Notes under the pieces: generated by a model
The model's database searches: none
Told to the model about the DNA's origin: nothing
The model's input: the letters and a program-made list of their open reading frames with translations, nothing else
Shown here: positions 12,397 to 36,460 of the stretch, in pieces
How positions within the stretch are numbered: the stretch's first letter is position 1
Layout: the number at the start of each line of letters is the position of its first letter
Made by a program: the position numbers and the translations under genes
Assembly: GCA_021307325.1 (NCBI GenBank)
Contig: CP089931.1
Coordinates: forward strand, 62,001-126,000
DNA from: Peptoniphilus sp. GNH
GTDB lineage: Bacteria; Bacillota; Clostridia; Tissierellales; Peptoniphilaceae
Direction of reading: 5' to 3'
DNA: 64,000 bases

Positions 12397-12425
12397 TTGA
12401 CAATTTTTAAATTTGAATTTATATT
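12397..12425 (+). promoter_or_regulatory. Promoter of the tetR/ABC exporter operon
   Basis: TTGACA (12397-12402), a 17-base spacer and TATATT (12420-12425). A near-consensus sigma-A promoter, about 30 bases before the tetR start. Confidence 0.75.
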
Positions 12426-12459
12426 TTTCTTATAGACGCAATCGTCGGTAGAGGTGCTT

Positions 12460-13041
12460 ATGAATAGAAATAAAAGAATGTCATTTGAAAATAGAAAAGA
12501 AGAAATAAAAAAAGTGGCAGCAAAAGTCTTTGTAAAGAAGGGTTTTTCCAATACCAGCATGGAAGATTTAATTAAAGAGAGTGGTCTTTCGAAGGGAGGA
12601 TTTTATCATTACTATAAAAACACCACCGATATTATCTATGATCTGATGCTTGATGGTATCGAATATAGAAATGAAATAATGAAAAAATCTTTAGATGTTA
12701 AAGGGAAATTAAGCCCGGATTTTTTCGCTAGTGAAATGACAAAAAAAGTCACAGATAGGACTTCTTATATGGATGTTTATGTGGAATTTTTACTGGCGAA
12801 AAAGAGAAATGAAAAACTCGAAGGAGTGTTTGAGCTTTTGAAGCTAAGGACTATTGAAGCTTTTAAGAGCGTGAATAAAGATTTTAGCAAATATAGTATG
12901 CAAAGTGATAAGTTTGACCTCTTAACTTTTTTCGTAAACGCCATGATACTATCTTCAAACATTTTAAATGGTGAAGATATTTTAAATGCCAACAGAGATT
13001 TGTTAGATGAGATTTTTCTATTGATTTTAAATAAGGACTAA
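12460..13041 (+). CDS. TetR-family repressor
   Basis: A 193-residue regulator. The N-terminal helix-turn-helix (about residues 10-55) has the TetR pattern A-K-V-F-V-K-K-G-F-S-N-T-S-M-E-D-L, then S-G-L-S-K-G-G-F-Y-H-Y-Y-K-N. The C-terminal ligand and dimer domain is helical and not assigned to a ligand. ATG 12460 is preferred over GTG 12454, because AGAGG at 12450-12454 is at the right distance. It precedes two ABC exporter genes by 54 bases, and an imperfect inverted repeat in that gap is a likely operator. By analogy with HrtR/FhuR-type systems, it may sense haem or another exported compound; that is inference from the adjoining haem genes. Confidence 0.85.
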   Translation: MNRNKRMSFENRKEEIKKVAAKVFVKKGFSNTSMEDLIKESGLSKGGFYHYYKNTTDIIYDLMLDGIEYRNEIMKKSLDVKGKLSPDFFASEMTKKVTDRTSYMDVYVEFLLAKKRNEKLEGVFELLKLRTIEAFKSVNKDFSKYSMQSDKFDLLTFFVNAMILSSNILNGEDILNANRDLLDEIFLLILNKD

Positions 13042-13053
13042 TTTTTTTTAATT

Positions 13054-13079
13054 TGTATTGATAATTCGTATCGACAATA
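13054..13079 (+). promoter_or_regulatory. Candidate TetR operator
   Basis: An imperfect inverted repeat, ATTGATA and GTATCGACAAT around ATTC, lies between tetR and the first ABC gene, just upstream of the AAAGGAG ribosome binding site. It is a plausible TetR binding site. It also resembles the TGATA/TATCA dyads found upstream of the later haem genes. Confidence 0.45.
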
Positions 13080-13095
13080 AAAGAAAGGAGAAAGT

Positions 13096-14850
13096 ATGAA
13101 AGTATACAAAAAATTATTTAGCTATGTGGCAGATTTAAAGCCTTTTATATTTCTTGCTGTAATCATAGCCATAGCATCGTGTATTTTGACGAATTTTGGC
13201 TATTATCTAATTTATAAATTTTTAAAAGCGCTTATGATTGATTCTAATCTTGATGTGGCAAAAAGTTATGCTTTTAGGATTGCAGCCTTTATATTTACTG
13301 GAGTTTTATTATATTTTATATCCTTGCTCATGGCTCATAAAGTGGGTTTTCATTTGGAAAATGTACTTAGAAAAAAGGGAGTTGAGGGACTTAGTAAGGC
13401 AGGGTTTAGATTTTTTGACACTCATCCATCTGGCAGTTTGAGAAAGATAATAGATGATAATGCTTCTTTGACTCATACAATAGTTGCTCACATGATACCA
13501 GATAACACAAAAGCTTTTACAACACCGGTTTTGATCTTGATTTTGGGATTCTTCATAAGTCCAAGAGTTGGAATATGTATCTTGATTATGACGCTTACTT
13601 GTCTTGCGTGCCTTGCAAGCATGATGGGTGGCAGCGATTTTATGAAAGTTTATCAAGCTGCCCTAGATGAACTTTCGGCAGAAACTGTTGAATACATAAG
13701 AGGAATCTCCGTAATCAAAATCTTTGGAGTTTCCGTATCTTCTATGAAAAAGCTCTTTGAGCTGATAAATAAATATTCAGATTATGCCTATAAGTATTCT
13801 CAAAAATGTAAAAAGACATATATCATCTATCAAGTTCTATTTTTTGGTTTGGTTGCAATTTTGACTATTCCACTTGTATTTTTAATTGATAAGCTGGGGG
13901 ATCAAAGGCTAATCGCTTTAGACTTAATGATGATAATATTTTTGTCTGGGCTTATGTTTTCAGCCTTGATGCAGGTAATGTATGTTAGTATGTATTCCTT
14001 CCAAGGAAATTACGCAGTGGATTCTTTGACAAATCTTTATGAAAAAATGGAAAAAGAAAAAATTTCTTTTGGTAGCGAAGACAATTTTAAAAATCACAAT
14101 ATAGAATTTAAAAATGTAAGTTTTTCTTATGATGATAAAAAAGTCATAGAGAATCTTTCCTTTAGACTTGATGAGGGCAAAATATATGCCCTTGTAGGAG
14201 AATCAGGCTCTGGTAAATCAACTATAGCTAAACTATTGTGCGCCTATTACAAGATAGACTCTGGCGAAATTTTAATAGGCGATAAACCTATCGAAGCATA
14301 TTCTCAAGATGCCCTTATAAAAGAAATTTCTTTTGTATTTCAAGATACGAAACTTTTTTCTGATACTATTTATAATAATGTCTTAATAGCAAGAGAAGAT
14401 GCAAGCAGAAAGGACGTTTTACAAGCCATGTCGCTAGCTGGGTTGGATAGTCTTTTGGAAAAGCTTGAAGATAAAGAAGATACCCTAATAGGAACTGATG
14501 GTGTTTATCTTTCTGGTGGAGAGTCTCAAAGAGTTGCCATCGCAAGAGCAATTTTAAAAAATTCCAACATTATAATAATGGATGAGGCTTCGGCATCTAT
14601 AGATCCAGACAATGAATATGAACTTCAAAAGGCTTTCAAAAATTTGATGAAAGGCAAAACTGTTCTTATGATTGCCCACAGACTTTCTGCCATAAGAGGA
14701 GTGGATGAGATTTTACTTGCAGAAAATGGCAAGATAGTTGAAAGAGGATCCCACGAAGAGTTATTTGCAAAAGATGGAAAATACAAAAGACTTTACACTA
14801 TGTATACAGAGGCCAATGAATGGAGGGTTAGTGATGAAAAACTTTCTTAA
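13096..14850 (+). CDS. ABC exporter half-transporter A (permease-ATPase fusion)
   Basis: A 584-residue protein with six membrane helices in residues 1-310 and an ATPase domain from about 335. Motifs: Walker A V-G-E-S-G-S-G-K-S-T, signature L-S-G-G-E-S-Q-R-V, Walker B I-I-I-M-D-E-A-S-A-S-I-D and H-loop A-H-R, all with normal catalytic residues. Its 3' end overlaps the next ABC gene by 17 bases, so the two almost certainly form a heterodimer like the IrtAB, YbtPQ or SiaGH-type exporters. The substrate is unknown; location beside haem uptake genes and behind a TetR regulator suggests haem, a porphyrin or an iron chelator. Confidence 0.88.
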   Translation: MKVYKKLFSYVADLKPFIFLAVIIAIASCILTNFGYYLIYKFLKALMIDSNLDVAKSYAFRIAAFIFTGVLLYFISLLMAHKVGFHLENVLRKKGVEGLSKAGFRFFDTHPSGSLRKIIDDNASLTHTIVAHMIPDNTKAFTTPVLILILGFFISPRVGICILIMTLTCLACLASMMGGSDFMKVYQAALDELSAETVEYIRGISVIKIFGVSVSSMKKLFELINKYSDYAYKYSQKCKKTYIIYQVLFFGLVAILTIPLVFLIDKLGDQRLIALDLMMIIFLSGLMFSALMQVMYVSMYSFQGNYAVDSLTNLYEKMEKEKISFGSEDNFKNHNIEFKNVSFSYDDKKVIENLSFRLDEGKIYALVGESGSGKSTIAKLLCAYYKIDSGEILIGDKPIEAYSQDALIKEISFVFQDTKLFSDTIYNNVLIAREDASRKDVLQAMSLAGLDSLLEKLEDKEDTLIGTDGVYLSGGESQRVAIARAILKNSNIIIMDEASASIDPDNEYELQKAFKNLMKGKTVLMIAHRLSAIRGVDEILLAENGKIVERGSHEELFAKDGKYKRLYTMYTEANEWRVSDEKLS

Positions 14851-16552
14851 AAATAAATTTGCACTCACAGATCAAGGCGCAAGTGGAGCTATGAAGTCTG
14901 GATTATATAGCTTTTTAGTTTTTGTAATCAATATGTTTCCAGCTATCTTGCTTATGATTTTAATGGACAAATTCCTTTTAAATCATGTAAGAAGTAGGAG
15001 TTTTTATCTTATATTTTCTATACTTACTATAATAGCAATGATCATTCTTTTGAGCTTGGAATACGAATCTCAATATAATGAGACTTATAGGGAAGCCGCA
15101 AACTTGAGGATAGACTTGGCAAAAAAGTTATCGGAACTTGAAATGTCATATTTTTCCAAGCATGACCTTTCTGATTTGGCACAAAGCATCATGGCAGATG
15201 TTGCAAGCATAGAACACGCAGTAAGCCATGCCGTACCAAAGGCAATTGGATTTACTATATTTATTCCTCTTATAACTATTTTAATGTTAATTGGCAATTG
15301 GAAGATGACGCTTGTGGCAGTTGGCCCGACTATCTTATCTTTTTTACTAATTTTGCTTGCCAAGAACTACTCCAAGGCCCAATTCAATAAGCATTATGTA
15401 AAACTTAGAAAAAATTCCAAGGCTTATCAAGAAAGAATAGAGCTTTCGAAAGAAATCACATCCTTTAACCTTGCAGAAAAATTCAAAAAAGATCTTTATA
15501 AAAAACTAGATGAGAGTGAACAAATTCAATGGTCAAGCGAGAGAAACAATGCCTTTATAATGCTTTTTTCGGGCATTTCATCTCACTTATCACTGCCATT
15601 GACAATAATACTTGGAATTTTTCTACTTAGAAGTGGAGAAATTTCAATTCTCTATCTTTTAGGCTATATCTTGGCATCTATGAAAATTAAAGATGCAGTC
15701 GATGCCAATATGGAATTTTTCATGGAAATGTTTTATATGGATTCTGCAGTAAAAAGAATCAACGAAATAAGACAAGCCAAAGTTTTGCAAGGAAGAGATG
15801 CCAAGTTCAAAAATTTTGATGTAGAAGTCAAAAATTTAGACTTTTCCTATGTCAAAGAAAAGAAAATCTTAGACAATGTAAGCTTCACAGCACCCCAGGG
15901 TATGGTGACAGCCTTGGTAGGTGAATCCGGTTGTGGCAAGACCACTGTTTTGAGACTTATATCAAGACTCTACGACTTTGAAAAAGGAGAGATTTTAATA
16001 GGTGGCAAGGATATAAAAGAAGTCTCAACCAAGAGCCTTTATGAAAATATATCTATAGTTTTCCAAGATGTAAAACTTTTCAACACAAGCATTATGGAAA
16101 ATATCAGAATAGGAAGAAAGAACGCAAGCGATGAAGATGTAATGGAGGCAGCAAGACTTGCCAATTGCGACTTCATAAAGAACTTAAAAGACGGATTTGA
16201 AACAATTATAGGAGAAAATGGAGAGCAATTATCTGGGGGCGAACGTCAAAGAATTTCAATAGCAAGAGCATTTTTAAAAGACTCTCCAATACTGATTTTA
16301 GATGAAATAGCCTCAAGTTTAGATGTGGACAATGAAAGAAAAATTCAAGAATCCCTAAACAAATTAATAAAGAACAAGACAGTAATAATCATATCTCACA
16401 GGATGAAGTCCATAGAAAAAGCGGACAAGATAGTAGTTTTAAAAGAAGGTAGAGTCGAAAATGTGGGTAGTCACAAGGAACTATTAAAGATCAGCCCAAG
16501 CTATCAAAACCTAATAGAAAAAACTTTAGCCGCAGAAAAATTTGTCTACTAA
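14834..16552 (+). CDS. ABC exporter half-transporter B
   Basis: A 572-residue partner of the previous gene, starting at ATG 14834 inside its 3' end, with GGAGGG at 14822-14827; an open frame from 14738 is only a continuation without a start signal. Six membrane helices lie in about residues 15-300. Motifs: Walker A V-G-E-S-G-C-G-K-T-T, signature L-S-G-G-E-R-Q-R-I, Walker B I-L-I-L-D-E-I-A-S-S-L-D and H-loop S-H-R. Both ATP sites of the presumed heterodimer therefore look competent. A terminator follows about 85 bases after the stop codon, so tetR and the two exporter genes form a closed transcription unit. Confidence 0.88.
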   Translation: MKNFLKNKFALTDQGASGAMKSGLYSFLVFVINMFPAILLMILMDKFLLNHVRSRSFYLIFSILTIIAMIILLSLEYESQYNETYREAANLRIDLAKKLSELEMSYFSKHDLSDLAQSIMADVASIEHAVSHAVPKAIGFTIFIPLITILMLIGNWKMTLVAVGPTILSFLLILLAKNYSKAQFNKHYVKLRKNSKAYQERIELSKEITSFNLAEKFKKDLYKKLDESEQIQWSSERNNAFIMLFSGISSHLSLPLTIILGIFLLRSGEISILYLLGYILASMKIKDAVDANMEFFMEMFYMDSAVKRINEIRQAKVLQGRDAKFKNFDVEVKNLDFSYVKEKKILDNVSFTAPQGMVTALVGESGCGKTTVLRLISRLYDFEKGEILIGGKDIKEVSTKSLYENISIVFQDVKLFNTSIMENIRIGRKNASDEDVMEAARLANCDFIKNLKDGFETIIGENGEQLSGGERQRISIARAFLKDSPILILDEIASSLDVDNERKIQESLNKLIKNKTVIIISHRMKSIEKADKIVVLKEGRVENVGSHKELLKISPSYQNLIEKTLAAEKFVY

Positions 16553-16765: not shown

Positions 16766-16806
16766 TTGATATAAGCTTGTAAAGTCAAGACGTATAAGGA
16801 GAAATT

Positions 16807-16919: not shown

Positions 16920-17294
16920 TTGAAATACATATATTTAATTTTAGGTTTTCTTTTTTTAGGCATAGGAGTGGTGGGGATATACTTGCCACTTTTGCCAGCA
17001 ACTCCATTTTTATTGTTGGCAGCGGCATTTTTTGCAAAGGGATCTGAAAAGTTTCATAAGTGGTTTACATCTACAAAAATTTACGAAAATAACATCAAAC
17101 CAATAAAGGACAAGGAAGGGCTCACTCTCAAGAAAAAATTTAAGATTTTGGGCATGATTACTCTTTTTATAGCCATATCTTTTTACTTTGTAAAAATCAG
17201 TCATGCAAGGATTTGTCTTATAGTGGTTTTAATATTTCATTATATTTACTTTTTCACAGCGATAAAAACTATAAAGGAGGCAAAAGATGCTTAA
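16920..17294 (+). CDS. YbaN-like (DUF454) inner-membrane protein
   Basis: A 124-residue protein matching the YbaN/DUF454 pattern: N-terminal helix with G-x-x-G-I-Y-L-P-L-L-P-A-T-P-F-L-L-L-A-A, then F-F-A-K-G-S-E-K-F-H-K-W-F-T, and two C-terminal helices. TTG 16920 has AGGAGG at 16909-16914, giving a start M-K-Y-I-Y-L. The gene overlaps the next ABC gene by eight bases, so they are translationally coupled. The molecular role of DUF454 is not established. Its fixed position ahead of a CydDC-like pair in a haem locus suggests a part in haem or thiol handling at the membrane; that is inference. Confidence 0.8.
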   Translation: MKYIYLILGFLFLGIGVVGIYLPLLPATPFLLLAAAFFAKGSEKFHKWFTSTKIYENNIKPIKDKEGLTLKKKFKILGMITLFIAISFYFVKISHARICLIVVLIFHYIYFFTAIKTIKEAKDA

Positions 17295-18993
17295 TAAAAA
17301 ACTCATAAGAGAAATTGGAAGGGAAAAAAACTCCCTCATAATTTTAATAAGTTTAAAAGTTTTAGAACTTTTAACTAATGTCGCTCTTATATTTAGCATA
17401 GGAAACTTTATAAATCAGCTCGTCAAAGCAAGTTATGATGAAAAAAAGTTTATAGTCCAAATATTTGCAATTTTACTTGTAAAAATTATAATCATAAAAC
17501 TAAACTCCTACATATCCTATAAGGTATCAATAAGGATAAAAAAATCTTTGAGGCAAAGACTTTTTAAAAAAGTTTATGGTTTCAAATTGGACTATGGGCA
17601 AAAGATATCGATATCAGAAATAATAAATCTGAGTGTAGAAGGTATAGAGCAACTTAATATATTTTATGGCGAACTCTTGCCTCAACTTATTTTTTCAATT
17701 CTTGGTCCACTCATATTATTTGTAATTATGGCAAGTATAAATATAAAGATTTCCTTAATAATACTTGTTTTTATCCCCTTTATACCCATAGCCATAATGA
17801 TGGTACAAAAATTAGCTAAAAAAGTTGTAAAATCATATTGGCGCTCCTACTCAAATCTGGGAGAAGTATTTATAGACTTTCTCTACGGGCTTAGCACACT
17901 TAAAATTTTCAATGCAGATGAGAAATACAATGATAAATTAAACGAGATGGCAGAAGATTTTAGATTAAAAACTATGAAACTTCTAATGGTTCAGCTAAAC
18001 AATATAACGGTTATGGACTTGGTTTCATACAGTGGCACTGCCACTAGTATTTTCATGACCCTCTACTACTTCTATCAAGGGCAGATTAGTATTTTCACAG
18101 GCTTTGTATTCATCCTGCTTTCTCAAGAATTTTTCAATCCTCTAAGAAGGCTGGGAGCCTTATTTCACGTCGCTATGAATGGCATTTCAGCAGCCAACTC
18201 CTTGTTTGAAGTTTTAGAAATAGAAGAAAGTGCGGATGGAAGTGGAGAAATAAAAGAAGATGAAGTTGAAATCAAAATAAAAAATCTTGATTTTTCTTAT
18301 GGCGACAAAAAAGTTTTAGAAGACATAAATTTAACTTGCAAGAAAAATCAAATAACCTGCTTTGTAGGCAAGAGTGGCTGCGGAAAATCAACTCTTGCAA
18401 AGCTCATATGTGGCATACTCAAAGACAAAAAATCTGTCATTTTTTACAATGATAAAAACGACATAAAATCAGATAGCATAATTGAAAATATCTGCATGAT
18501 AGACAATGATCCCTTTATATTCAGCCAAAGCTTGAGATATAATCTGTTATTTGCAAATCCTTCGGCAGAAGATAAGGAGCTAGAAGAGAGTTTGAAATCT
18601 GTCGGTCTATATGAATATTTTGAAAAGCAAAATGGACTCGATACTATATTAGAAGGCCAGGGCAATAATTTGTCTGGAGGACAAAAGCAGAGGATATCAA
18701 TAGCAAGAGCCATCTTAAAAAAGTCCAAAGTTCTAATTCTCGATGAGGCCATTTCCAATATTGATATAGAATCAGAACAAATAATATTGAAGCTTCTTCA
18801 AGACATGAAAAAAGATATGAACATAATTTTAATTACACATAGACTTAGGAATACGGAAAATTCTGACTATATATATTTCTTGGAGGACAAGAAAATAATT
18901 GAAGAAGGAACCTTCGACCAAATGATGACAAAAGATAAATTCAGCACGCTTTATAAATCTCAAATGGATTTGGAAATGTGGGGTGTTTTATGA
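17287..18993 (+). CDS. CydD-like ABC half-transporter
   Basis: A 568-residue permease-ATPase fusion with six predicted helices in residues 15-300 and an ATPase domain from about 325. Walker A V-G-K-S-G-C-G-K-S-T, signature L-S-G-G-Q-K-Q-R-I, Walker B V-L-I-L-D-E-A-I-S-N-I-D and H-loop T-H-R are intact. The overall layout resembles CydD of the CydDC cysteine/glutathione exporter, a system now linked to haem, and the ABC genes at the end of the streptococcal shr-shp-hts region. Its stop overlaps the next start by four bases, so the two products probably form a heterodimer. The substrate is not known. Confidence 0.8.
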   Translation: MLNKKLIREIGREKNSLIILISLKVLELLTNVALIFSIGNFINQLVKASYDEKKFIVQIFAILLVKIIIIKLNSYISYKVSIRIKKSLRQRLFKKVYGFKLDYGQKISISEIINLSVEGIEQLNIFYGELLPQLIFSILGPLILFVIMASINIKISLIILVFIPFIPIAIMMVQKLAKKVVKSYWRSYSNLGEVFIDFLYGLSTLKIFNADEKYNDKLNEMAEDFRLKTMKLLMVQLNNITVMDLVSYSGTATSIFMTLYYFYQGQISIFTGFVFILLSQEFFNPLRRLGALFHVAMNGISAANSLFEVLEIEESADGSGEIKEDEVEIKIKNLDFSYGDKKVLEDINLTCKKNQITCFVGKSGCGKSTLAKLICGILKDKKSVIFYNDKNDIKSDSIIENICMIDNDPFIFSQSLRYNLLFANPSAEDKELEESLKSVGLYEYFEKQNGLDTILEGQGNNLSGGQKQRISIARAILKKSKVLILDEAISNIDIESEQIILKLLQDMKKDMNIILITHRLRNTENSDYIYFLEDKKIIEEGTFDQMMTKDKFSTLYKSQMDLEMWGVL

Positions 18994-20648
18994 GAAATTT
19001 AAAAGAGAAAAAGATTTTGCTAAAAGAGCTTTTAAAACTAGTAGAACCACTTAAAATACCCATGATTTTTGCGGTTATATTTGGACTCTCGGGCCATGTT
19101 TTTGCAACCCTTATTCCAGGACTTGGAGCTTTTTACTTCGGTAAAATTTATATGGGGGAACAAATAAATCTCAAGTTAATTTTATTTATCCTACTTATGC
19201 TTGCAGTCTTGAGATCTCTATTTAAATACACAGAGCAACTTTTCAACCACTATGTTGCATTTAAGACTCTTGCGATAATAAGGGACTTAGTTTTTAAAAG
19301 CTTAAGAAGACTATGCCCAGCTAAGATGGACACCAAAAACAAGGGCCAGCTCATATCTATAATAACCTCAGACATAGAGCTCTTAGAAGTTTTCTATGCC
19401 CATACGATTTCACCAGTTTTAATAGCATTTTTCCATACGCTCATATTTTTTATAATTTTATTTGGAATAAATGTAAAATATGCCATCTGCCTTTTGATTT
19501 TTCATATTTTGTTGGGACTAATAATCCCCACGCTAACTCAAAAATTTGGCAAAAAACTGGGTGAAGACCAAAGAAAAGACCTATCCAATTTAAATTCGTC
19601 AATTCTTGAAAGTTTAAAAGGCATAAAAGAAATAATAAATTTTTCAAGACAAAAAGAAAGACTTGCAGAGATAGACAAATTAACTAGAAACTTGAACAAG
19701 TCATCCAAGAAATTGTCAAAAAATATGGGCAACAATTTTTCAGTATCCTCAAGCCTTATAATATTTGCTAACCTCGTATTTATCCTACTAGGAGCAAGCC
19801 TATATAAAATCGGCCAAATAAACTTTAAAGATTTAATTTTCGCAACGGCAATCTTCATATCGTCCTTTGGCCCTACATCAGCCCTAGCATCACTTGGGAA
19901 CAATTTAGTCCTGACCTTTGCATGCGGCAAAAGAGTGATTGAGCTTCTAAAAGAAGAGGCTCAAGTGGATGAAGTAATCAACAAAAAAGACATAAAATAC
20001 GAAAACTTGAGGCTAGAGAATGTGGCATTTTCCTATGACGAAACCGAGCTTATAAAAGATTTTTCCCTAAAAGCTGACCTAAATAGAATAATAGGCCTAA
20101 AGGGAAAGAGTGGCTGTGGAAAATCGACCATCCTAAAACTTATAATGAGGTTTTTCGACCCGAATCAAGGGGAAATACTTTTTAACGAAGAAAATATAAA
20201 AGAAATAAACAGCAAAAATCTCAGAGAAAACATCTCCTATGTCGCCCAAGAAAGCCATCTATTCAAGGGAAGCATAAGAGAAAACTTGCTAATAGCAAAA
20301 GAAGATGCAAGCGAAGAAGAATTAAAAATAGCCACACAAAAAGCAAATATCTACGATTTCATAATCTCACTTGAAGAAGGCTTTGACACAGAAATTGTAA
20401 AAGACAAGACCCTCCTATCGACAGGTCAGATTCAAAGGCTTGCCATAGCGAGAATCTTTTTGAGAGATGCAAAGCTATATATCTTAGACGAGCCGACAGC
20501 AAACATTGACGCCTACAACGAAGGCATAATATTGAAATCCCTCTACGAAGAAAAAGATGAAAAGACAATTCTAATATCATCACATAGACAAAGCACACTT
20601 AGAATATGCGACCAAGTAATAAATATGCAAAGGAGCATCAGTTCTTAA
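18990..20648 (+). CDS. CydC-like ABC half-transporter with degenerate signature
   Basis: A 552-residue partner of the previous gene. ATG 18990 overlaps its stop in ATGA; an upstream GTG at 18978 is less likely. Six helices lie in about residues 15-300. Walker A is G-K-S-G-C-G-K-S-T and Walker B L-Y-I-L-D-E-P-T-A-N-I-D, but the signature reads L-L-S-T-G-Q-I-Q-R-L rather than LSGGQ. The H-loop S-S-H-R is present. Such a change predicts one weakened ATP site in the heterodimer, a known property of many heterodimeric ABC exporters. The stop codon is followed one base later by the regulator gene. Confidence 0.8.
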   Translation: MRNLKEKKILLKELLKLVEPLKIPMIFAVIFGLSGHVFATLIPGLGAFYFGKIYMGEQINLKLILFILLMLAVLRSLFKYTEQLFNHYVAFKTLAIIRDLVFKSLRRLCPAKMDTKNKGQLISIITSDIELLEVFYAHTISPVLIAFFHTLIFFIILFGINVKYAICLLIFHILLGLIIPTLTQKFGKKLGEDQRKDLSNLNSSILESLKGIKEIINFSRQKERLAEIDKLTRNLNKSSKKLSKNMGNNFSVSSSLIIFANLVFILLGASLYKIGQINFKDLIFATAIFISSFGPTSALASLGNNLVLTFACGKRVIELLKEEAQVDEVINKKDIKYENLRLENVAFSYDETELIKDFSLKADLNRIIGLKGKSGCGKSTILKLIMRFFDPNQGEILFNEENIKEINSKNLRENISYVAQESHLFKGSIRENLLIAKEDASEEELKIATQKANIYDFIISLEEGFDTEIVKDKTLLSTGQIQRLAIARIFLRDAKLYILDEPTANIDAYNEGIILKSLYEEKDEKTILISSHRQSTLRICDQVINMQRSISS

Positions 20649-20649
20649 A

Positions 20650-21471
20650 ATGAATGAAATGAATTTGACCAAAGTACAAGTCGAATATTTGTTATTTATA
20701 AAAAATACAAAAAGAGAAAAAACAATAACAGAAGCAGCTAGACATTTCGACTGCTCCAAGGTAAACGCCAAAAAAATAATGGATAGAATGCTCATTTTGG
20801 GAATTTTCTATAAAGACCTAAACCAATATAATCTCACAGCCATAGGCGAAAAATATGCCAAAGATTACAGCAAAATGCTAGATGACGCAAGAATATTTAC
20901 AAAAAATCTTGCCAAGATTGAAGGAGAAAATTTAGAAAAAATTGCTGGCGAATTGATACACATACAAAACTTAAAAGACACAATAGAAAAGTATGCAGGA
21001 AGAAGAAGGAAAATTGATAAATTAGGAAATAAAGTAAAAAACGAAGACTTTTTAAAAATTTATTCAAAAGATTCTTGCGACATAAGCATGATTATCTATA
21101 AAATAAGTCACAACAATTTAGGCTCATTTTTAGATAATTCAATGGCAATGATGGGCTTTGAGCAAAAAGTCCAAATTGTGGCAGACAAAGAAGATTATAT
21201 CTTGCTAAAAACTCGTCTAGTAGAAAGAGCCCAAAATGGCTACCATAAAAAAGCCATGGCAGTAAACCTATTTTATGAAGACGAAAAAGCTGAACACAAA
21301 ATAGATTCAGAAGATAGAAGTTTTAAAGTTCCCTTAAAAATCATAAAATTTTGGAATAACTTGGGGAATGGAGTCCTTCAAGCATCAATAAATTTGACAT
21401 TGAAAGCTCAAATTGGTTTCGGTTCCCACGTAGAAAAGGCAAATTTTGTTTTTTCTGTTAACCTACATTAA
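20650..21471 (+). CDS. Regulator with DtxR/MntR-like winged helix and an unrecognised C-terminal domain
   Basis: A 273-residue protein. Residues 6-72 read like the N-terminal winged helix of DtxR-family metal regulators: V-E-Y-L-L-F-I, I-T-E-A-A-R-H-F-D-C-S-K-V-N-A-K-K-I, M-D-R-M-L-I-L-G-I-F-Y and L-T-A-I-G-E-K-Y-A-K-D-Y. The middle (70-130) is helical and charged. The C-terminal half (about 140-273) is strand-rich, does not look like the DtxR metal or SH3 domain, and ends in a hydrophobic strand. It follows the CydDC-like genes after one base and precedes the NEAT/Shp operon, so it is a good candidate for a haem- or iron-responsive regulator of the locus. The ligand is unknown. Confidence 0.6.
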   Translation: MNEMNLTKVQVEYLLFIKNTKREKTITEAARHFDCSKVNAKKIMDRMLILGIFYKDLNQYNLTAIGEKYAKDYSKMLDDARIFTKNLAKIEGENLEKIAGELIHIQNLKDTIEKYAGRRRKIDKLGNKVKNEDFLKIYSKDSCDISMIIYKISHNNLGSFLDNSMAMMGFEQKVQIVADKEDYILLKTRLVERAQNGYHKKAMAVNLFYEDEKAEHKIDSEDRSFKVPLKIIKFWNNLGNGVLQASINLTLKAQIGFGSHVEKANFVFSVNLH

Positions 21472-21557: not shown

Positions 21558-21597
21558 AAGAAATAAGTTAGCTGCGGTTAACTTATTTCTTTTTTTT
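21558..21597 (+). terminator. Strong terminator between the CydDC-like operon and the NEAT operon
   Basis: AAGAAATAAGTTA (21558-21570) pairs perfectly with TAACTTATTTCTT (21579-21591), followed by T residues. It separates two transcription units of the haem locus. Confidence 0.9.
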
Positions 21598-21670
21598 AAA
21601 AGCTATTAAAATAAAAAAATATAACTTAATATGATGATATAAATTATCAAATAAAAAGGAGGTCTTTAAA

Positions 21671-26697: not shown

Positions 26698-26707
26698 AGG
26701 AGGAAAA

Positions 26708-27223
26708 TTGAAGGGACTAATAATATATTCATCAAGAACGGGCAATACAAAAAGAATGGCGGAAAAAATTTATCAAGTCTTAAAAGAGAAACACCAGATG
26801 ATAATAAGAGATATGAAAGATTTAAAAGACACAGAAAATTGTGACTTTATACTCTTGGGTGCGTGGATAGACAGAGGAACATTAGAAACAAAAGCACTAA
26901 AGTTATTAAAAACAATAGAAAACAAAAAAATTGGACTCTTTGCCACTCTAGGAGCCATGCCAGACTCAGAACATGGAAAGAAGGTGATAAAAAACTTAGA
27001 GAATCTTTTAATAGACAGGGATTCCTTGGGACAATACATATGCCCAGGCCTAGTTGACCCCAAGATGATAGAAAAACTAAAAGGGATAACAGGTCTTGTA
27101 GTGCCGAAGAAGATTAAAGAAAAAATGATAGAAACAAGCCTTAAATCAAGAGAGGCGACAGAAGAAGAACTATTAAAAGCTGCAAACTATTTTGCAGAGA
27201 ATATAAAACAGTTAGCAAACTAA
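26708..27223 (+). CDS. Flavodoxin-domain protein, probable partner in haem utilisation
   Basis: A 171-residue soluble flavodoxin. The FMN phosphate loop is near the N-terminus (Y-S-S-R-T-G-N-T-K), followed by L-L-G-A-W-I-D-R-G-T (about 50-60) and A-T-L-G-A-M-P-D-S-E (about 80-90). TTG 26708 with AAAGGAGG just upstream puts the first strand at residue 2, as expected for flavodoxins; longer frames start inside htsC. Flavodoxins next to haem importers have been linked to anaerobic haem breakdown (HmuF) or bilirubin reduction (BilS); which, if either, applies here is inference. No haem oxygenase gene is visible in the window, which makes an oxygen-free route attractive. Confidence 0.8.
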   Translation: MKGLIIYSSRTGNTKRMAEKIYQVLKEKHQMIIRDMKDLKDTENCDFILLGAWIDRGTLETKALKLLKTIENKKIGLFATLGAMPDSEHGKKVIKNLENLLIDRDSLGQYICPGLVDPKMIEKLKGITGLVVPKKIKEKMIETSLKSREATEEELLKAANYFAENIKQLAN

Positions 27224-27263
27224 GAGCTAAAAAGTAAGACAAAAAAATATGAAAGGAGTACCA

Positions 27264-30200
27264 ATGAATAAAATAAAAAGAATAATATCGGCAACACTTG
27301 TCGGAATTATGATAATCCCTTCAGCAGTATCAGCATTCCAGACAGCACCTGTGGAGAATATAAACCCGATAATTCAAACAGTTGAGCTACGAGAAGCAGC
27401 AAATAAGGCAGATATTCCATCGATCAAGTATGAAGCAATGCCTCTTATTGATGAAAATGACGCAATGAATGCAGGTATAAAAGGGCTTTGGGAAAATGGA
27501 AAGTTTAAATACACCAAAGAAGAATATAATAAGATGCTTGCGGCTCGTTATAAAGATAACAACAGTCTTTTTAACGTGGAAATAGGAGTTAATCCATATT
27601 ACGAAGTTGAAATTAAAGACAATAAAGCAAATCTTACAGTATCTTATGTAAACAATGTAATGGGAGAAGAAAGTCCCGAAGAATATGGTTTAGTAAAAAT
27701 AGATGACGATGAAGACATCATATATAAAACTGCCGATGGAAACTCACAGCCTGTCGAAATACTGGATGCAGAAGAGTTTACTTTAGACCCGGCTAGAGAC
27801 GAGTATGGAGAGAGAATTACAAAGATAAGACTTGATAATGTACCTTTGTCTAAACTTGGAGATGCAAATCAATTCATATATCTTGAAAATGCCAGATATG
27901 TACGTTGCTATAGTGAGTGGGAAGATCTAAAAGTTGATGCCAAACCGGCCAAAGGGGAAGAGTCTACTGAAAACATGTATGGCATTTTTAACTTTGACTT
28001 GAATAAAATGGTCCTTGTGGAGAGTGCAAAACCTGGCTTAAATAAAGCTACCCTACAAGAAAAGGTCAATGAAGCTAAGGCTATTGAACAAGGCAAGAAG
28101 ACAGACGAAGCCTTCGCCAAACTTAAAGCAGCAATCGCAGCAGCAGAAGAAACATTAAAAACTGCAACAGATCAAAAAGCTTTAAACCAAGGAGTAGCGA
28201 CACTACAGGCAGCAGTAGAGGCTTTTAAAACAAGTGAAGACGTAAAGATTCCGGTAGAAGACGGAATATACACCGCACCTGTGAGAGTGGATCATGCATA
28301 TGACCTGGGAAAGCAATCTATGGCAAACGGTGCAATAGAACACACTGCAAAAGTAGTCTACAGAGGAGACAAAGTTACACTTGAACTTACATTTAATGGC
28401 ATGGATCTAATGAAAATGAAAGGCCATTTGACAAACCTCTTCTTTTACAAAGACAACAAAGACCCCAAAAATAATAATGATGTAATAGAAGCGGAAGTAA
28501 TAAAGACACAGTTGGACCTTGGCTTAGACGGTAAAAAGCATAATTATCCCCAAATATTCAAATACACAATGGACAAAAGTGTATTTGAAGCATCAGACTT
28601 CTTATGGATCAAAGTTTGGGTAGATGCAATGGATGCTATTGCTTCAATAGGAGAACCAACTGTTATTCCGGGGAAAGGAGCACAAAACGCCAAGATAGTA
28701 ATAGACAAGACCAACTTCACAAAAGTTATTTTAAATACACAAGACTTGTCAAATGCAATCAAAGCGGCAAAAGAGATAGTTAAAGGCAATAAAAAAGTAG
28801 AAGAATTTAACATACTTCAAAGCGTAATTACAGAAGCTGAAAAGGTATTAAAAGAAGCAACGGACCAAGATGATTTGGACAAAGAAGTAACAACACTTAA
28901 GGCAGCAGTAGAAGACTTTAAAGCAAGTGAAGACGTAAAGCTCCCGACAGAAGACGGAATATATTTGGCATCTGTGGAAATAGGACACGCATCCAATCCT
29001 GGACAAAAATCCATGGCAAACGGTGCGATAGAACACATTGCAAAACTAATTTTAAAAGAAGACAAAGTAAAAGTAGAGCTTACATTTAAAGGCATGGATC
29101 TAAGCGGAATGAAAGGTCACTTGACAAATCTGTTCTATTTTGAAAATAACCAAGATCCAAGAAGTGGTGGACGTGCAGTAGAAACAAAAATAGAAAAAAA
29201 CTTTACAGACATGGGTCTGGACGGACAAGAGAAAGAGTTCCCACAAGTCTTCAGTTTCACAATGGACAGAAATCTATTTGAAGCATCGGAATTCTTATGG
29301 TGCAGAGTTTGGGTAGATGCAATGGACTTTATAATGGGCGGCCCCGGAAAAGGAGCACAAGAAGCAAGAATAATTATAAATAAAGAGCATCTTCAAAAAG
29401 TTGTTTTAAATACAGAAGCTTTAACAAAAGAAATTGCAGCGGCAAAAGAAATAGTTAAAGGCAAGAAAACAGAAGAAGCATTTAAAAAACTTAAAGCAGC
29501 AATAACAGCAGCAGAAGAAACATTAAAAACTGCAACAGATCAAGAAGCTTTAAACCAAGGAGTAGCGACACTAAAAGCAGCAGTAGAAACCTTTAACAAC
29601 AGTCCTAATGTATTAGAAAAAGAAGCTTTAACAAAAGAAATAGCAGAAGCTAAGAAGATTGAACAAGGCAAGAAAACAGACGAAGCATTTAAAAAACTTA
29701 AAGCAGCAATCGCAGCAGCAGAAGAAACATTAAAAACTGCAACAGATCAAGAAGCTTTAAACCAAGGAGTAGCGACACTAAAAGCAGCAGTAGAAACCTT
29801 TAACAACAGTCCTAATGTATTAGAAAAAGAAGCTTTAACAAAAGAAATAGCAGAAGCTAAGAAGATTGAACAAGGCAAGAAGACAGACGAAGCATTTAAA
29901 AAACTTAAAGCAGCAATAACAGCAGCAGAAGAAACATTGAAAACTGCAACAGATCAAGAAGCTTTAAACCAAGGAGTAGCGACACTAAAAGCAGCAGTAG
30001 AAACCTTTAACAACAGTCCTAATGTATTAGAAAAAGAAGCTTTAACAAAAGAAATAGCAGAAGCTAAGAAGATTGAACAAGGCAAGAAGACAGAAGAAGC
30101 ATTTAATACCCTTAAAGCAGCAATCGCAGCAGCAGAAGAAACATTAAAAACTGCAACAGATCAAGAAGCTTTAAACCAAGGAGTATCGACATTAAAAGCA

Positions 30201-31622
30201 GCAGTAGAAACCTTTAAAAACAGTCCTAATGTATTAGAAAAAGAAGCTTTAACAAAAGAAATAGCAGCGGCAAAAGAAATAGTTAAAGGCAAGAAAACAG
30301 AAGAAGCATTTAAAAAACTTAAAAAAGCAATAACAGCAGCAGAAGAAACATTAAAAACTGCAACAGATCAAGAAGCTTTAAACCAAGCAGTAGCGACACT
30401 AAAAGCAGCAGTAGAAACCTTTAAAAATAGTCCTAATGTATTAGAAAAAGAAGCTTTAACAAAAGAAATAGCAGAAGCTAAGAAGATTGAACAAGGCAAG
30501 AAAACAGACGAAGCATTTAGCAAACTTAAAAAAGCAATCGCAGCAGCAGAAAAAGTATTAGGTGAAGCAACAGAGCAAACTCAATTAGATGAAGCGGTTA
30601 AAGCATTAAAAACAGCAGTAAAAGCCTTTAAAGAAAGTGCAGATAAAGTTGAACCACAAGCACCACTAAAAAAAGAAGCTTTAACAAAAGAAATAGCAGA
30701 AGCTAAGAAGATTGAACAAGGCAAGAAAACAGACGAAGCATTTAAAAAACTTAAAGCAGCAATCGCAGCAGCAGAAAAAGTATTAGGGGAAGCAACAGAG
30801 CAAACCCAACTAGATGAAGCAGCAACTACATTAAAAGCAGCAGTAGAAACCTTTAACAACAGTCCGGACAAGAAGGTAACACCGACACCTACACCTACAC
30901 CTACACCGCAACCGGATCCGAAGCCGACACCTAATTATCCAAGCTACCCATCATACCCGAGGGATAATTCCACAACAGCGGGTTCAACTACCAAGCCGAC
31001 AGCGGATAAAGGTACAAAGAACGCAGAAACAAAATCACCTGCCAAAGAAGTAAAAAGAGAAGCACAAAATAGTAAGGCTGACAACTTCACAGACATTGAA
31101 GGCCACTGGGCAAAAGAAGCCATCAAATATGTAGTCAACAAAGGCTACTTCCAAGGAGTAAATGATAGGGAATTTGCACCGAACAAAGGCATCACAAGAG
31201 GACAACTTGTAACGGTACTTGGAAGAATATTAAACATCGACAAGACAGCATTTAAATCAAATAATTTCAAAGACGTCAAAGCAGATGCATACTACGCACC
31301 ATATATAGCTTGGGCGGAAAGCGTCGGCATAACCAAGGGTAGAGGAAACGGAAGCTTTGACCCGGACAAAGAAATCACAAGAGAAGAAATGGCAGTTATG
31401 ATGGTTAAATTCTTAAAGCTTTCAGGCAAAAAAATAAATGTCAAGGGAACTGCAAGTGCATTTAAAGACGACACAAATATAGAATCTTGGGCAAAAGATG
31501 CAGTAGTAGAAATGGCTAAACTTGGACTTGTAAAAGGCATGGAAGATGGAAGCTTCTCACCCAAGACACAATTTACAAGAGCACAAGTAGCACAAATTCT
31601 ATACAACATAGACAAGAACTAA
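27264..31622 (+). CDS. Giant NEAT-FIVAR-SLH surface haem-binding protein
   Basis: A 1452-residue exported protein; ATG 27264 has AAAGGAG upstream and gives a signal peptide (about 1-24). Order: an N-terminal unassigned domain (25-255), FIVAR helical repeat, NEAT 1 (about 330-480), FIVAR, NEAT 2 (about 560-710), seven more FIVAR-type repeats of about 69 residues, a Thr/Pro-rich wall-spanning linker, and three SLH domains at the end. NEAT domains carry S-M-A-N-G-A-I and the end motif V-W-V-D-A-M-D; the classical YxxxY is absent. SLH domains bind secondary cell-wall polymer, so the protein is displayed on the surface. The FIVAR stack likely acts as a stalk. It lies 40 bases after the flavodoxin gene with no terminator between, so it is probably part of that operon. 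Confidence 0.88.
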   Translation: MNKIKRIISATLVGIMIIPSAVSAFQTAPVENINPIIQTVELREAANKADIPSIKYEAMPLIDENDAMNAGIKGLWENGKFKYTKEEYNKMLAARYKDNNSLFNVEIGVNPYYEVEIKDNKANLTVSYVNNVMGEESPEEYGLVKIDDDEDIIYKTADGNSQPVEILDAEEFTLDPARDEYGERITKIRLDNVPLSKLGDANQFIYLENARYVRCYSEWEDLKVDAKPAKGEESTENMYGIFNFDLNKMVLVESAKPGLNKATLQEKVNEAKAIEQGKKTDEAFAKLKAAIAAAEETLKTATDQKALNQGVATLQAAVEAFKTSEDVKIPVEDGIYTAPVRVDHAYDLGKQSMANGAIEHTAKVVYRGDKVTLELTFNGMDLMKMKGHLTNLFFYKDNKDPKNNNDVIEAEVIKTQLDLGLDGKKHNYPQIFKYTMDKSVFEASDFLWIKVWVDAMDAIASIGEPTVIPGKGAQNAKIVIDKTNFTKVILNTQDLSNAIKAAKEIVKGNKKVEEFNILQSVITEAEKVLKEATDQDDLDKEVTTLKAAVEDFKASEDVKLPTEDGIYLASVEIGHASNPGQKSMANGAIEHIAKLILKEDKVKVELTFKGMDLSGMKGHLTNLFYFENNQDPRSGGRAVETKIEKNFTDMGLDGQEKEFPQVFSFTMDRNLFEASEFLWCRVWVDAMDFIMGGPGKGAQEARIIINKEHLQKVVLNTEALTKEIAAAKEIVKGKKTEEAFKKLKAAITAAEETLKTATDQEALNQGVATLKAAVETFNNSPNVLEKEALTKEIAEAKKIEQGKKTDEAFKKLKAAIAAAEETLKTATDQEALNQGVATLKAAVETFNNSPNVLEKEALTKEIAEAKKIEQGKKTDEAFKKLKAAITAAEETLKTATDQEALNQGVATLKAAVETFNNSPNVLEKEALTKEIAEAKKIEQGKKTEEAFNTLKAAIAAAEETLKTATDQEALNQGVSTLKAAVETFKNSPNVLEKEALTKEIAAAKEIVKGKKTEEAFKKLKKAITAAEETLKTATDQEALNQAVATLKAAVETFKNSPNVLEKEALTKEIAEAKKIEQGKKTDEAFSKLKKAIAAAEKVLGEATEQTQLDEAVKALKTAVKAFKESADKVEPQAPLKKEALTKEIAEAKKIEQGKKTDEAFKKLKAAIAAAEKVLGEATEQTQLDEAATTLKAAVETFNNSPDKKVTPTPTPTPTPQPDPKPTPNYPSYPSYPRDNSTTAGSTTKPTADKGTKNAETKSPAKEVKREAQNSKADNFTDIEGHWAKEAIKYVVNKGYFQGVNDREFAPNKGITRGQLVTVLGRILNIDKTAFKSNNFKDVKADAYYAPYIAWAESVGITKGRGNGSFDPDKEITREEMAVMMVKFLKLSGKKINVKGTASAFKDDTNIESWAKDAVVEMAKLGLVKGMEDGSFSPKTQFTRAQVAQILYNIDKN
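29415..30865 (+). repeat. Seven tandem repeats, 207-bp period
   Basis: Unit starts, aligned on GAAGCTTTAACAAAAG, are 29415, 29622, 29829, 30036, 30243, 30450 and 30675. The first six are exactly 207 bases (69 codons) apart; the last gap is 225. The central units are almost identical in DNA, showing recent duplication or conversion, so copy number may vary between strains. Confidence 0.95.
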
Positions 31623-35508: not shown

Positions 35509-35518
35509 TTATTAAACA

Positions 35519-35540
35519 GGGACAGTCAAAGGGCTGTCCC
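35519..35540 (+). other. Hairpin between NEAT genes
   Basis: GGGACAG (35519-35525) pairs with CTGTCCC (35534-35540). There is no T run, and the ribosome binding site GAGGTG follows at 35547. It is more likely a transcript-stabilising stem than a terminator. Confidence 0.5.
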
Positions 35541-35556
35541 CCAAACGAGGTGTAAT

Positions 35557-36417
35557 ATGAAAAAAATATTTTTATCAATAGTATTGGCATTAGTTTTAGT
35601 ATCCTCATTCGGATTTGCAGCGACAAAGTATGAAGTGCCTGTCAAGCTCGAAAAGTTTGGAGAGCCGGGCAAGGAATCTATGGGAAATCCTTCACTAAAA
35701 CAAATAGCAGATGTAGAAGAAAGGGATGGCAAATTTATTTATAATCTTTATTTGAAAAAGATGGAGTTTATGAATATGGAAGGAGAACTCACAAATTTAT
35801 TTATCTATGAAGGGGACAAGGACTCCAACAGAGTTGAAACTAAGCAAAGTCCTATAAGTGGTGAATATTCTAAACGTCATGAGTTTGAAAGAAAAAATGC
35901 CAAAGAAGATAAAATTTTGGTGGCTGTTTGGGTTGATGCTATGGATGCAATAGCAGGAGGTGGCAAGGGTTCTGGTGAACAAAAGGCCTATTTAGTCTTT
36001 GACTGGAAAAATGCCAAGGCTCTTGATGCAAAAGAAGATGTTAAGGCTCCTATAAAGGATGACAAGAAAGCAGGGACTCAAATTAAAATTCTCATAAATG
36101 AAAAGGAAATGACTCCTGAGACTCCCGCTTATATTGAAAGTGGAAGGACCATGGTGCCACTTAGATTTATATCTGAAGCTCTTGGAGAAAAGGTGGACTG
36201 GAACAATGCTAAAAGGACTGTGACTATCGGAGATAATAAGGCAAGTTTAGTGATCGGTTCAAAAGAAATTGATGCCAATGGCAAGAAGATTTTGATAGAT
36301 TCTCCAGCAGTTATTAAAAGTTCTAGGACTTTTGTACCCCTAAGGGCAATTTCTGAAATTCTGGGGGCAAAAGTTTCATGGGAAGGAGCGACCAAGACTG
36401 TAAAGATAATAAAATAG
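35557..36417 (+). CDS. Secreted NEAT protein with copper-amine-oxidase-N-type wall domain
   Basis: A 286-residue exported protein. Signal peptide at 1-22, one NEAT domain (about 24-155: Y-E-V-P-V-K-L-E-K-F, K-E-S-M-G-N-P-S-L, V-A-V-W-V-D-A-M-D), then two copper-amine-oxidase-N-terminal-like repeats (about 175-286; M-V-P-L-R-F-I-S-E-A-L-G and F-V-P-L-R-A-I-S-E-I-L-G). The latter module is a common wall-associated domain in Firmicutes and need not bind copper. With no SLH repeats this is the smallest NEAT protein here and may be a mobile haem carrier. It is the last gene of the haem locus and is followed by a clear terminator. Confidence 0.88.
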   Translation: MKKIFLSIVLALVLVSSFGFAATKYEVPVKLEKFGEPGKESMGNPSLKQIADVEERDGKFIYNLYLKKMEFMNMEGELTNLFIYEGDKDSNRVETKQSPISGEYSKRHEFERKNAKEDKILVAVWVDAMDAIAGGGKGSGEQKAYLVFDWKNAKALDAKEDVKAPIKDDKKAGTQIKILINEKEMTPETPAYIESGRTMVPLRFISEALGEKVDWNNAKRTVTIGDNKASLVIGSKEIDANGKKILIDSPAVIKSSRTFVPLRAISEILGAKVSWEGATKTVKIIK

Positions 36418-36432
36418 TTTTGGCTATGGGAT

Positions 36433-36460
36433 GAGGCGAGTTTTATCTCGCCTTATTTTT
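36433..36460 (+). terminator. Terminator closing the haem locus
   Basis: AGGCGAG (36434-36440) pairs with CTCGCCT (36447-36453), followed by TATTTTTTT. Confidence 0.9.

What the first reader, a model, noticed from the sequence alone, without database searches (positions are those of the whole stretch)
12397..36460. A 24-kb one-direction haem-economy locus: export, regulation, capture, relay, import and processing
Two ABC exporter pairs, two regulators, a membrane NEAT protein, an Shp-like protein, an Hts-type importer, a flavodoxin and three surface NEAT proteins are collinear with few breaks. Parts resemble the streptococcal shr-shp-hts region, but the SLH-anchored NEAT proteins, TetR-exporter unit, YbaN/CydDC-like set and flavodoxin form a combination I do not know as a described system. 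It suggests uptake balanced by export of haem or its products in an anaerobe.
Basis: partly seen in the sequence, partly recalled or inferred. Interest (0 to 1): 0.85.

Follow-up and report, generated by a model that had tools for sequence, protein, structure and literature searches.

The report
Haem-uptake locus with NEAT-domain haem sensor
This anaerobe's haem-scavenging gene cluster is a widespread, largely known type, but its switch protein appears to be a new kind: an iron-regulator DNA-binding half fused to NEAT, the haem-gripping domain otherwise known only outside cells, which would let the cell read its own haem level.

Summary
The genes are real and collinear, but the 24 kb is two units. 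The conserved core (16.75-36.42 kb) is two operons: DUF454-CydDC-like-regulator, and mNEAT-Shp-HtsABC-flavodoxin-three surface NEAT proteins. This order is syntenic across Peptoniphilaceae, and Shp-HtsABC-CydDC recurs in Lachnospiraceae and Coriobacteriales. It is an elaborated shp/hts (sia-like) haem-uptake locus in an organism without HemB or cytochrome bd. The TetR-ABC pair (12.45-16.55 kb) is absent beside the locus in the closest relatives, but a related pair recurs beside haem loci in five other genomes.

The surprise is the 'second regulator' (20650-21471). Its N-half is a DtxR/MntR-type repressor whose metal ligands are mostly lost. Its C-half is a NEAT domain: a predicted fold matching haem-NEATs at Z 10.9, NEATs alone heading a profile search of the PDB, and Pfam NEAT in relatives. 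Described NEATs are extracellular. A palindrome AGTTARC-N4-GYTAACT precedes both operons and, at one mismatch or fewer, occurs nowhere else in the genome.

Best reading: a cytoplasmic haem sensor repressing both operons. Haem binding, DNA binding and transport direction are untested. 'Uptake balanced by export' is not established: the CydDC-like pair shares the uptake operator, so it may import or process haem.

The parts
12397..12425 (+). Promoter-like site of the TetR-ABC unit (TTGACA, 17 nt, TATATT)
   Evidence: 11 of 12 consensus matches, best in the region; not evidence of function
12454..13041 (+). TetR-family regulator of the adjoining ABC pair
   Evidence: PF00440 E 2e-11
13096..14850 (+). 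ExpA: ABC half-transporter with exporter fold (YbtP/IrtA/MsbA-like)
   Evidence: PF00664+PF00005; PDB half-transporters: YbtP 6p6i 248 bits, IrtA 232, MsbA up to 225
14837..16552 (+). ExpB: partner ABC half-transporter (ORF opens at 14738; likely ATG at 14837)
   Evidence: PF00664+PF00005; MsbA ~230-235 and YbtQ 229 bits
16748..16765 (+). Operator palindrome AGTTAAC-ATGG-GTTAACT, about 155 bp before DUF454
   Evidence: exact match; only two sites with at most 1 mismatch in the 1.86-Mb genome, both in this locus; same place in relatives
16920..17294 (+). DUF454 (YbaN-like) small membrane protein
   Evidence: PF04304 E 9e-36
17287..18993 (+). CydD-like ABC half-transporter
   Evidence: TIGR02857 348 bits (cut-off 435); E. 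coli haem ligand H312 = H294, invariant in 56/56
18978..20648 (+). CydC-like ABC half-transporter
   Evidence: TIGR02868 291 bits (cut-off 329); E. coli haem ligand H85 = H91, invariant in 60/60
20650..21471 (+). DtxR/MntR-like winged-helix half fused to a NEAT domain: proposed cytoplasmic haem-responsive repressor (residues 1-123 and about 139-273)
21034..21471 (+). NEAT domain of that regulator
   Evidence: AF2 pLDDT 88.1, pTM 0.83; VIA Z 10.9 to IsdX2-NEAT5; profile vs PDB: IsdX1 E 3.7e-6
21566..21583 (+). Operator palindrome AGTTAGC-TGCG-GTTAACT before the mNEAT operon
   Evidence: 1 mismatch; also scored as a hairpin followed by a T-run
21635..21649 (+). Fur-box-like palindrome TGATATAAATTATCA
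   Evidence: 2 mismatches to TGATAATNATTATCA; similar position in most close relatives; count alone not above chance; one FUR protein in the genome
21671..23110 (+). mNEAT: secreted, membrane-anchored NEAT protein, probably starting at ATA
   Evidence: PF05031 E 5e-5, below cut-off; signal peptide only complete from 21671, 8 nt after GGAGG; C-terminal TM
23085..24056 (+). Shp: membrane-anchored haem-relay protein
   Evidence: PF11545 164 bits; PDB 2q7a E 1e-21
24049..24960 (+). HtsA/IsdE haem-binding lipoprotein
   Evidence: TIGR03659 367 bits, cut-off 298.65
24957..25946 (+). HtsB permease
   Evidence: PF01032 E 1e-82
25936..26697 (+). HtsC ATPase
   Evidence: PF00005 E 3e-35
26678..27223 (+). 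Flavodoxin_3 protein, HmuF/FldH-like
   Evidence: PF12641 E 6e-37; best PDB match 8g64 E 1e-18, next 0.038
27249..31622 (+). Surface protein with NEAT domains and 3 SLH
   Evidence: PF05031, PF00395
31720..35508 (+). Surface protein with NEAT domains and 3 SLH
   Evidence: PF05031 58 bits, PF00395
35557..36417 (+). Secreted NEAT protein with Cu_amine_oxidN1 domain
   Evidence: PF07833 E 2e-36; NEAT by alignment with the others

Best explanation
The conserved core is a haem-acquisition locus of the shp-hts type. SLH-anchored and secreted NEAT proteins capture haem; membrane-anchored NEAT and Shp relay it; HtsABC imports it; the FldH-like flavodoxin handles haem or its breakdown product inside. 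The CydDC-like pair with DUF454 moves haem or a derivative across the membrane, direction open. A dedicated cytoplasmic regulator, a DtxR/MntR-type winged-helix half fused to a NEAT domain, senses haem directly. It holds the palindrome AGTTARC-N4-GYTAACT before both operons, its own included, and most likely shuts them when haem is plentiful, while Fur may add iron control at the second promoter. Shown by computation: gene content, synteny, the NEAT fold, loss of most metal ligands, conservation of S-M and His, operator placement, conserved haem-ligand histidines in CydDC. Inferred: haem binding by the regulator, its binding to the palindrome, the sign of regulation, and all transport directions.
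For: NEAT identity by four routes: Pfam NEAT in 10 of 39 homologues, best E 3.6e-6; a C-terminal-only HMM pulls out surface NEAT proteins as its first non-regulator hits, E down to 4e-15; the profile against the PDB ranks NEATs first, IsdX1 E 3.7e-6, non-NEATs from E 0.6; the domain-alone model matches NEATs at Z 10.9 with the first non-NEAT at 5.7. N-half: DtxR/MntR fold, Z 14.2, MntR E 8e-11. Metal ligands largely lost in the NEAT type, kept in five of six tandem paralogues in other loci. S164 38/39, M165 36/39, H260 33/39 with Tyr in two. No TM or signal. Operator: the only two genomic sites with at most 1 mismatch lie before the two operons, same places in relatives; related palindromes in distant clostridial loci, 48 observed against 5.4 expected. 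The regulator lies next to Shp/Hts genes in 8 of 8 genomes of other families. E. coli CydDC haem ligands invariant in 60/60 and 56/56.
Against: The window's own regulator has no Pfam NEAT match. Foldseek alone gave only a weak top hit, IsdB E 0.034, prob 0.96. No haem- or DNA-binding data exist. The His was not superposed residue by residue on the classical Tyr, and a MAFFT alignment with surface NEATs leaves gaps there. The 21566 palindrome is also a hairpin before a T-run, so it could be a terminator; the 16748 one is not. The pattern with 3 mismatches is not enriched in the window. No HutW-type haem-degrading radical SAM enzyme passes its cut-off.
Confidence: 0.62

Rival explanations
1. The regulator's NEAT domain no longer binds haem. 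It serves dimerisation or senses another ligand such as a haem breakdown product or bare porphyrin, and Fur does the iron/haem control.
For: Fur-like box before mNEAT and a FUR protein in the genome. Propionate-contacting residues of the CydDC pair differ from E. coli, hinting at a non-haem tetrapyrrole. Some described NEATs bind no haem (own knowledge).
Against: The S-M lip is kept in 38 and 36 of 39, and a potential ligand His in 33 of 39, across families about 20% identical. Strict linkage to haem loci.
Confidence: 0.25
2. One reading: haem economy by balanced uptake and export, with the CydDC-like pair and the TetR-ABC pair as exporters of haem or its products.
For: E. coli CydDC moves haem outward (PMC10374445) and its two axial His are invariant here. 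TetR- or MarR-controlled haem exporters exist (HrtR-HrtBA, PefR-PefCD; PMC12670364, PMC4837585). TetR-ExpAB recurs by haem loci, in two of them with the palindrome 32-33 bp before ExpA.
Against: The CydDC operon shares the uptake operon's operator, odd for a detoxifying exporter. There is no cytochrome bd to supply. ExpA scores best with the importers YbtP and IrtA. No palindrome precedes ExpA in the window.
Confidence: 0.25
3. The CydDC-like pair with DUF454 is an importer or membrane extractor of haem with an exporter fold, working beside HtsABC, and the same may hold for ExpAB (YbtPQ/IrtAB-like).
For: Shared operator with uptake genes. Conserved position next to HtsC in many Clostridia. S. 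pyogenes siaDE are up-regulated with shr-shp-siaABC on mucosa (PMC6593403). ExpA: YbtP 248 bits above MsbA 225.
Against: Similarity scores cannot tell direction. CydDC of E. coli exports. ExpB shows no preference for YbtQ over MsbA.
Confidence: 0.3
4. The palindromes are RNA hairpins or terminators, or TetR or Fur sites, not operators of the NEAT regulator.
For: The 21566 site scores as a terminator; both intergenic regions are AT-rich.
Against: The 16748 site has no T-run. The motif sits at the same two promoters in relatives, and in distant loci before regulator, NEAT and Shp genes, which fits an operator. Only two genomic sites at 1 mismatch or fewer.
Confidence: 0.15

Closest known systems
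Streptococcus pyogenes sia operon (shr-shp-siaABC-siaDE-siaFGH) under MtsR
   Same: Shp plus HtsABC importer, a NEAT receptor, two further ABC genes after siaC; a DtxR-family repressor controls it (PMC6593403, PMC12796733)
   Different: Here there are SLH-anchored multi-NEAT receptors, DUF454, a flavodoxin inside the uptake operon, no ECF trio in the operon, and the regulator is local and carries a NEAT domain in place of MtsR metal sensing. Whether siaDE are orthologues of the CydDC-like pair was not tested
Staphylococcal Isd system and other NEAT proteins
   Same: NEAT-domain haem capture and IsdE-type lipoprotein
   Different: NEATs reviewed as surface-displayed or secreted (PMC7815599); here one sits in a transcription factor
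DtxR/MntR/IdeR metalloregulators
   Same: N-terminal winged helix and dimerisation fold (Z 14.2)
   Different: Metal ligands mostly lost; the C-terminal domain is a NEAT
Cytoplasmic haem-sensing repressors HrtR, FhtR, HatR (TetR) and PefR, HsmR (MarR)
   Same: One-component regulators that read haem (PMC12670364)
   Different: Those bind haem in TetR/MarR scaffolds and mostly control efflux; this one would use a haem-chaperone domain and sits with uptake genes
Escherichia coli CydDC
   Same: Two-gene ABC pair; both haem axial His conserved
   Different: R81 to Gln, R136 to His, Y311 to Phe, K314 to Ala; below the family cut-offs; no cytochrome bd in the genome
Fusobacterium nucleatum HmuF/FldH
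   Same: Closest solved relative of the flavodoxin (8g64, E 1e-18)
   Different: No HutW/HmuW-type partner above cut-off in this genome; the His134 ligand position not resolved
YbtPQ and IrtAB siderophore importers
   Same: ExpA's best bacterial half-transporter match of known structure
   Different: ExpB shows no such preference; substrate unknown

Membership tests
shp-hts haem uptake locus | Shp (PF11545) next to an IsdE/HtsA-type importer | tested here: met
   PF11545 164 bits; TIGR03659 367 bits above cut-off; 2q7a E 1e-21
NEAT domain (regulator C-half) | Match above the Pfam gathering score | tested here: not met
   No NEAT match for the window protein; 10 of 39 homologues match, best E 3.6e-6; those shown score below the cut-off
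NEAT domain (regulator C-half) | NEAT beta-sandwich fold | tested here: met
   VIA: top 39 rows all NEAT domains, Z 7.4-10.9, then Shp 6.0, first unrelated 5.7; profile vs PDB E 3.7e-6
NEAT domain (regulator C-half) | Haem binding by Ser in the lip helix and Tyr in the last hairpin | tested here: inconclusive
   S-M conserved 38/39 and 36/39; in the last hairpin His in 33, Tyr in 2 of 39; binding untested, superposition not residue-resolved
DtxR/MntR family | Winged helix plus dimerisation helices | tested here: met
   Z 14.2 over 120 residues to MntR; MntR E 8e-11
DtxR/MntR family | Metal-binding residues | tested here: not met
   MntR D8, H77, E99 equivalents not conserved; E102/H103 fell in a gap; kept in 5 of 6 tandem paralogues of other loci
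CydDC | NCBIfam equivalog cut-offs | tested here: not met
   CydD 348 of 435, CydC 291 of 329 bits
CydDC | Axial haem histidines H85(C) and H312(D) | tested here: met
   60/60 and 56/56
CydDC | Serves cytochrome bd | tested here: not met
   No PF01654 in this genome or 60 relatives
HmuF/FldH flavodoxin | Sequence relationship to FldH | tested here: met
   8g64 E 1e-18, next flavodoxin 0.038
HmuF/FldH flavodoxin | His134 haem ligand | tested here: inconclusive
   Local alignment stops before it
HutW anaerobilin synthase pathway | TIGR04107 above 400 bits in the genome | tested here: not met
   Best 165 bits
YbtPQ/IrtAB importers | Closer to these than to MsbA-type exporters | tested here: inconclusive
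   ExpA yes, ExpB tie

The most novel reading that the evidence does not exclude
A widespread clostridial family of one-component haem sensors arose by replacing metal sensing in a DtxR-type repressor with a cytoplasmic NEAT domain, in which a His stands for the classical Tyr so that ferrous haem in a reducing cell can be bound. In some Lachnospiraceae it works in tandem with a metal-binding DtxR paralogue, so that iron and haem are read side by side on haem-uptake operons.
Probability: 0.5. Interest if true: 0.85.

Novelty: new variant of a known kind. Interest (0 to 1): 0.74.

Why it matters
NEAT domains have been described as surface-displayed or secreted haem carriers. A NEAT domain inside the cell, fused to a DNA-binding half and sitting in the haem operon, would be a new way to sense haem and would show the capture domain reused as the gauge. 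It gives a ready prediction (protein, 18-bp operator, putative ligand residue) that can be tested with purified parts, and a handle on how anaerobes that cannot make haem control its uptake. The conserved haem histidines in a CydDC-like pair without cytochrome bd also make the debated substrate and direction of that transporter class testable.

Tried and rejected
Treating 12.4-36.5 kb as one unit: rejected on synteny and operator positions. HutW/anaerobilin route: no match above cut-off. CydDC serving cytochrome bd: no oxidase. Foldseek on the full regulator model found only DtxR folds; the NEAT half had to be modelled alone. MAFFT mixing of regulator and surface NEATs to read the residue at the H260 column failed: gaps in surface proteins. 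Palindrome search with 3 mismatches in the window is not above chance; only the stricter count and cross-species position carry weight. Fur-box counts are not above chance in this AT-rich DNA; only position is suggestive. One HMM iteration let short or partial proteins in, so later tests used the curated A3/A4 sets. The relation of streptococcal siaDE to the CydDC-like pair could not be tested: no streptococcal locus among the 79 fetched. The PDB score preference of ExpA for YbtP is not taken as proof of import. SiaFGH paper search returned nothing in the held library.
Full report
WHAT IS THERE. The window lies in a 1.86-Mb single-contig genome of a Peptoniphilaceae (nearest named loci: Peptoniphilus duerdenii, P. 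asaccharolyticus). Shp and the HtsA/IsdE lipoprotein pass their family cut-offs, and the S. pyogenes Shp structure matches at E 1e-21.

SYNTENY. I mapped about 30 loci from the order and 79 named loci found with a Shp alignment. In Peptoniphilaceae (Peptoniphilus, Urinicoccus, Anaerosphaera, Aedoeadaptatus and MAGs) the order DUF454-CydD-CydC-regulator-mNEAT-Shp-HtsABC-(flavodoxin)-SLH/NEAT-NEAT3 is conserved; in Aedoeadaptatus the CydDC pair moves to the end. In Lachnospiraceae, Coriobacteriales and other Clostridia the core NEAT-Shp-HtsABC-DUF454-CydDC recurs. The locus as such is therefore a common type. The organism has no HemB, no cytochrome bd in any of 61 genomes searched and no HutW above cut-off: it appears unable to make haem, and the CydDC-like pair cannot be a cytochrome bd maturation factor here.

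THE TETR-ABC UNIT (12454-16552). It has its own promoter-like site and is absent beside the locus in the closest relatives. Yet a related ABC pair sits near haem loci in five other genomes, with a TetR gene in four of them (G119, G533, G282, L131, L136). In all five it is the best genome-wide match to ExpA; the five were picked because an ExpA-like gene lies near, so this is suggestive, not a rate. In L131 and L136 the palindrome described below lies 33 and 32 bp before ExpA. ExpA's best bacterial half-transporter in the PDB is the importer YbtP, then IrtA, then MsbA; ExpB is undecided. Export is thus an assumption.

THE CYDDC-LIKE PAIR. Below the CydD and CydC cut-offs, but each is best matched by its own model. 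Aligned with E. coli K-12 CydD and CydC, both axial haem ligands of the E. coli haem transporter (H85 of CydC, H312 of CydD; PMC10374445) are invariant in 60/60 and 56/56 locus homologues, while R81, R136 and Y311 are replaced uniformly and K314 in all 56. A haem-like substrate is likely; direction is open.

THE REGULATOR (20650-21471). No Pfam or NCBIfam hit for the window protein at E 0.001. Homologues were gathered from named loci (39 sequences, A3). The N-half is DtxR/MntR: VIA Z 14.2 over 120 residues, Foldseek E 6e-5, profile E 8e-11 to MntR. In a survey of 391 class genomes only 12 hold the full-length protein, most other hits covering just the DtxR-like half; in the eight of these from other families the gene lies next to NEAT/Shp/Hts genes every time. 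The MntR ligands D8, H77 and E99 are not conserved in the family, whereas a second, tandem regulator in several Lachnospiraceae keeps D/N8, E11, H77, C99, E102 and H103 in five of six cases, and one scores E 9e-11 with the DtxR metal/dimerisation domain.

THE C-HALF IS A NEAT DOMAIN. (i) Pfam NEAT hits in 10 of 39 homologues. (ii) An HMM of the C-half alone finds long surface NEAT proteins as its first non-regulator hits among all locus ORFs, E to 4e-15. (iii) Against the PDB the nine best distinct sequences are all NEATs (IsdX1, IsdX2-N5, Shr, Hbp2, IsdC), E 3.7e-6 to 0.17, the first unrelated at 0.6. (iv) The domain modelled alone (pLDDT 88.1, pTM 0.83) aligns with 39 NEAT entries at Z 7.4 to 10.9, then Shp at 6.0, then the first unrelated at 5.7; Foldseek by itself is weak (IsdB E 0.034). 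The protein has no TM or signal segment. Conserved in the regulators: S164 38/39, M165 36/39, Y209 39/39, P228 38/39, H260 33/39 with Tyr in two others. S-M is the lip motif of the surface NEATs too (111 and 112 of 113). H260 lies in the last hairpin, where classical NEATs carry the iron-ligand Tyr (own knowledge; PMC7815599 for the conserved Tyr linkage); that it is the ligand, and suits ferrous haem, is inference.

OPERATOR. Between regulator and mNEAT, and before DUF454, lies AGTTAAC/AGTTAGC-N4-GTTAACT. At one mismatch or fewer it occurs at exactly two places in the genome, both here (the reversed control pattern hits once). Relatives carry it at about 170-180 bp before DUF454 and 100-155 bp before mNEAT. 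In distant clostridial loci the form TTAGC-N4-GCTAA precedes regulator, NEAT and Shp genes, 48 matches with up to 2 mismatches against 5.4 expected (Markov model) in 971 kb. The streptococcal DtxR-family protein SloR also binds TTAA-type inverted repeats (PMC12096823). Caveats: the 21566 site also looks like a terminator, and with 3 mismatches the window holds no excess. A Fur-box-like site sits 57 bp before the ORF call of mNEAT (36 bp before the proposed ATA start), at a similar place in most close relatives, and the genome has one FUR protein.

MECHANISM. Haem scarce: regulator off the operators, both operons on; NEAT receptors and Shp pass haem to HtsABC; the FldH-like flavodoxin (8g64, E 1e-18; FldH and HmuF carry haem and HmuF reduces anaerobilin, PMC10404700) receives it. 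Haem plentiful: haem in the NEAT half switches the regulator to repression. The sign is inferred from co-regulation with uptake genes and from MtsR precedent; the opposite sign is possible.

NOVELTY. Searches of the held library for NEAT with regulators found only papers without such a protein; most subscription journals are not held, so absence is not proof. The locus is a new variant of a known kind; the regulator architecture is, as far as I could check, undescribed.

Noticed in passing
21671-23110: The mNEAT gene seems to start with ATA (8 nt after GGAGG); the relatives L099 (ATT) and L095 (ATA) also lack ATG/GTG/TTG there, while L091 and L093 use ATG. A rare start codon on a surface receptor gene may keep its level low.
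   Followed up: partly
L140:1713-2576, L128:615-1442, L146:520-1395, L156:269-1132, L163:1119-1994: Tandem second regulator in Lachnospiraceae haem loci with intact DtxR/MntR metal ligands and a degenerate C-half without the S-M lip: an iron reader beside a haem reader.
   Followed up: partly
9761-11323: ABC-F ribosomal-protection-type protein (Vga/CplR-like, NF000355 428 bits over cut-off 380) upstream of the locus.
   Followed up: no
G000:C1:1019696-1023143 (outside the window): A paralogous ABC pair whose first subunit is 58% identical to ExpA, inside a stretch with many ABC half-transporters (about 0.99-1.05 Mb).
   Followed up: no
13057-13076: Imperfect inverted repeat TTGATAATTCGTATCGACAA between TetR and ExpA, a possible TetR operator.
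   Followed up: no
G098:C59 (locus L049): One MAG carries two flavodoxins of this family in the same locus (57% and 49% identity to the window's).
   Followed up: no
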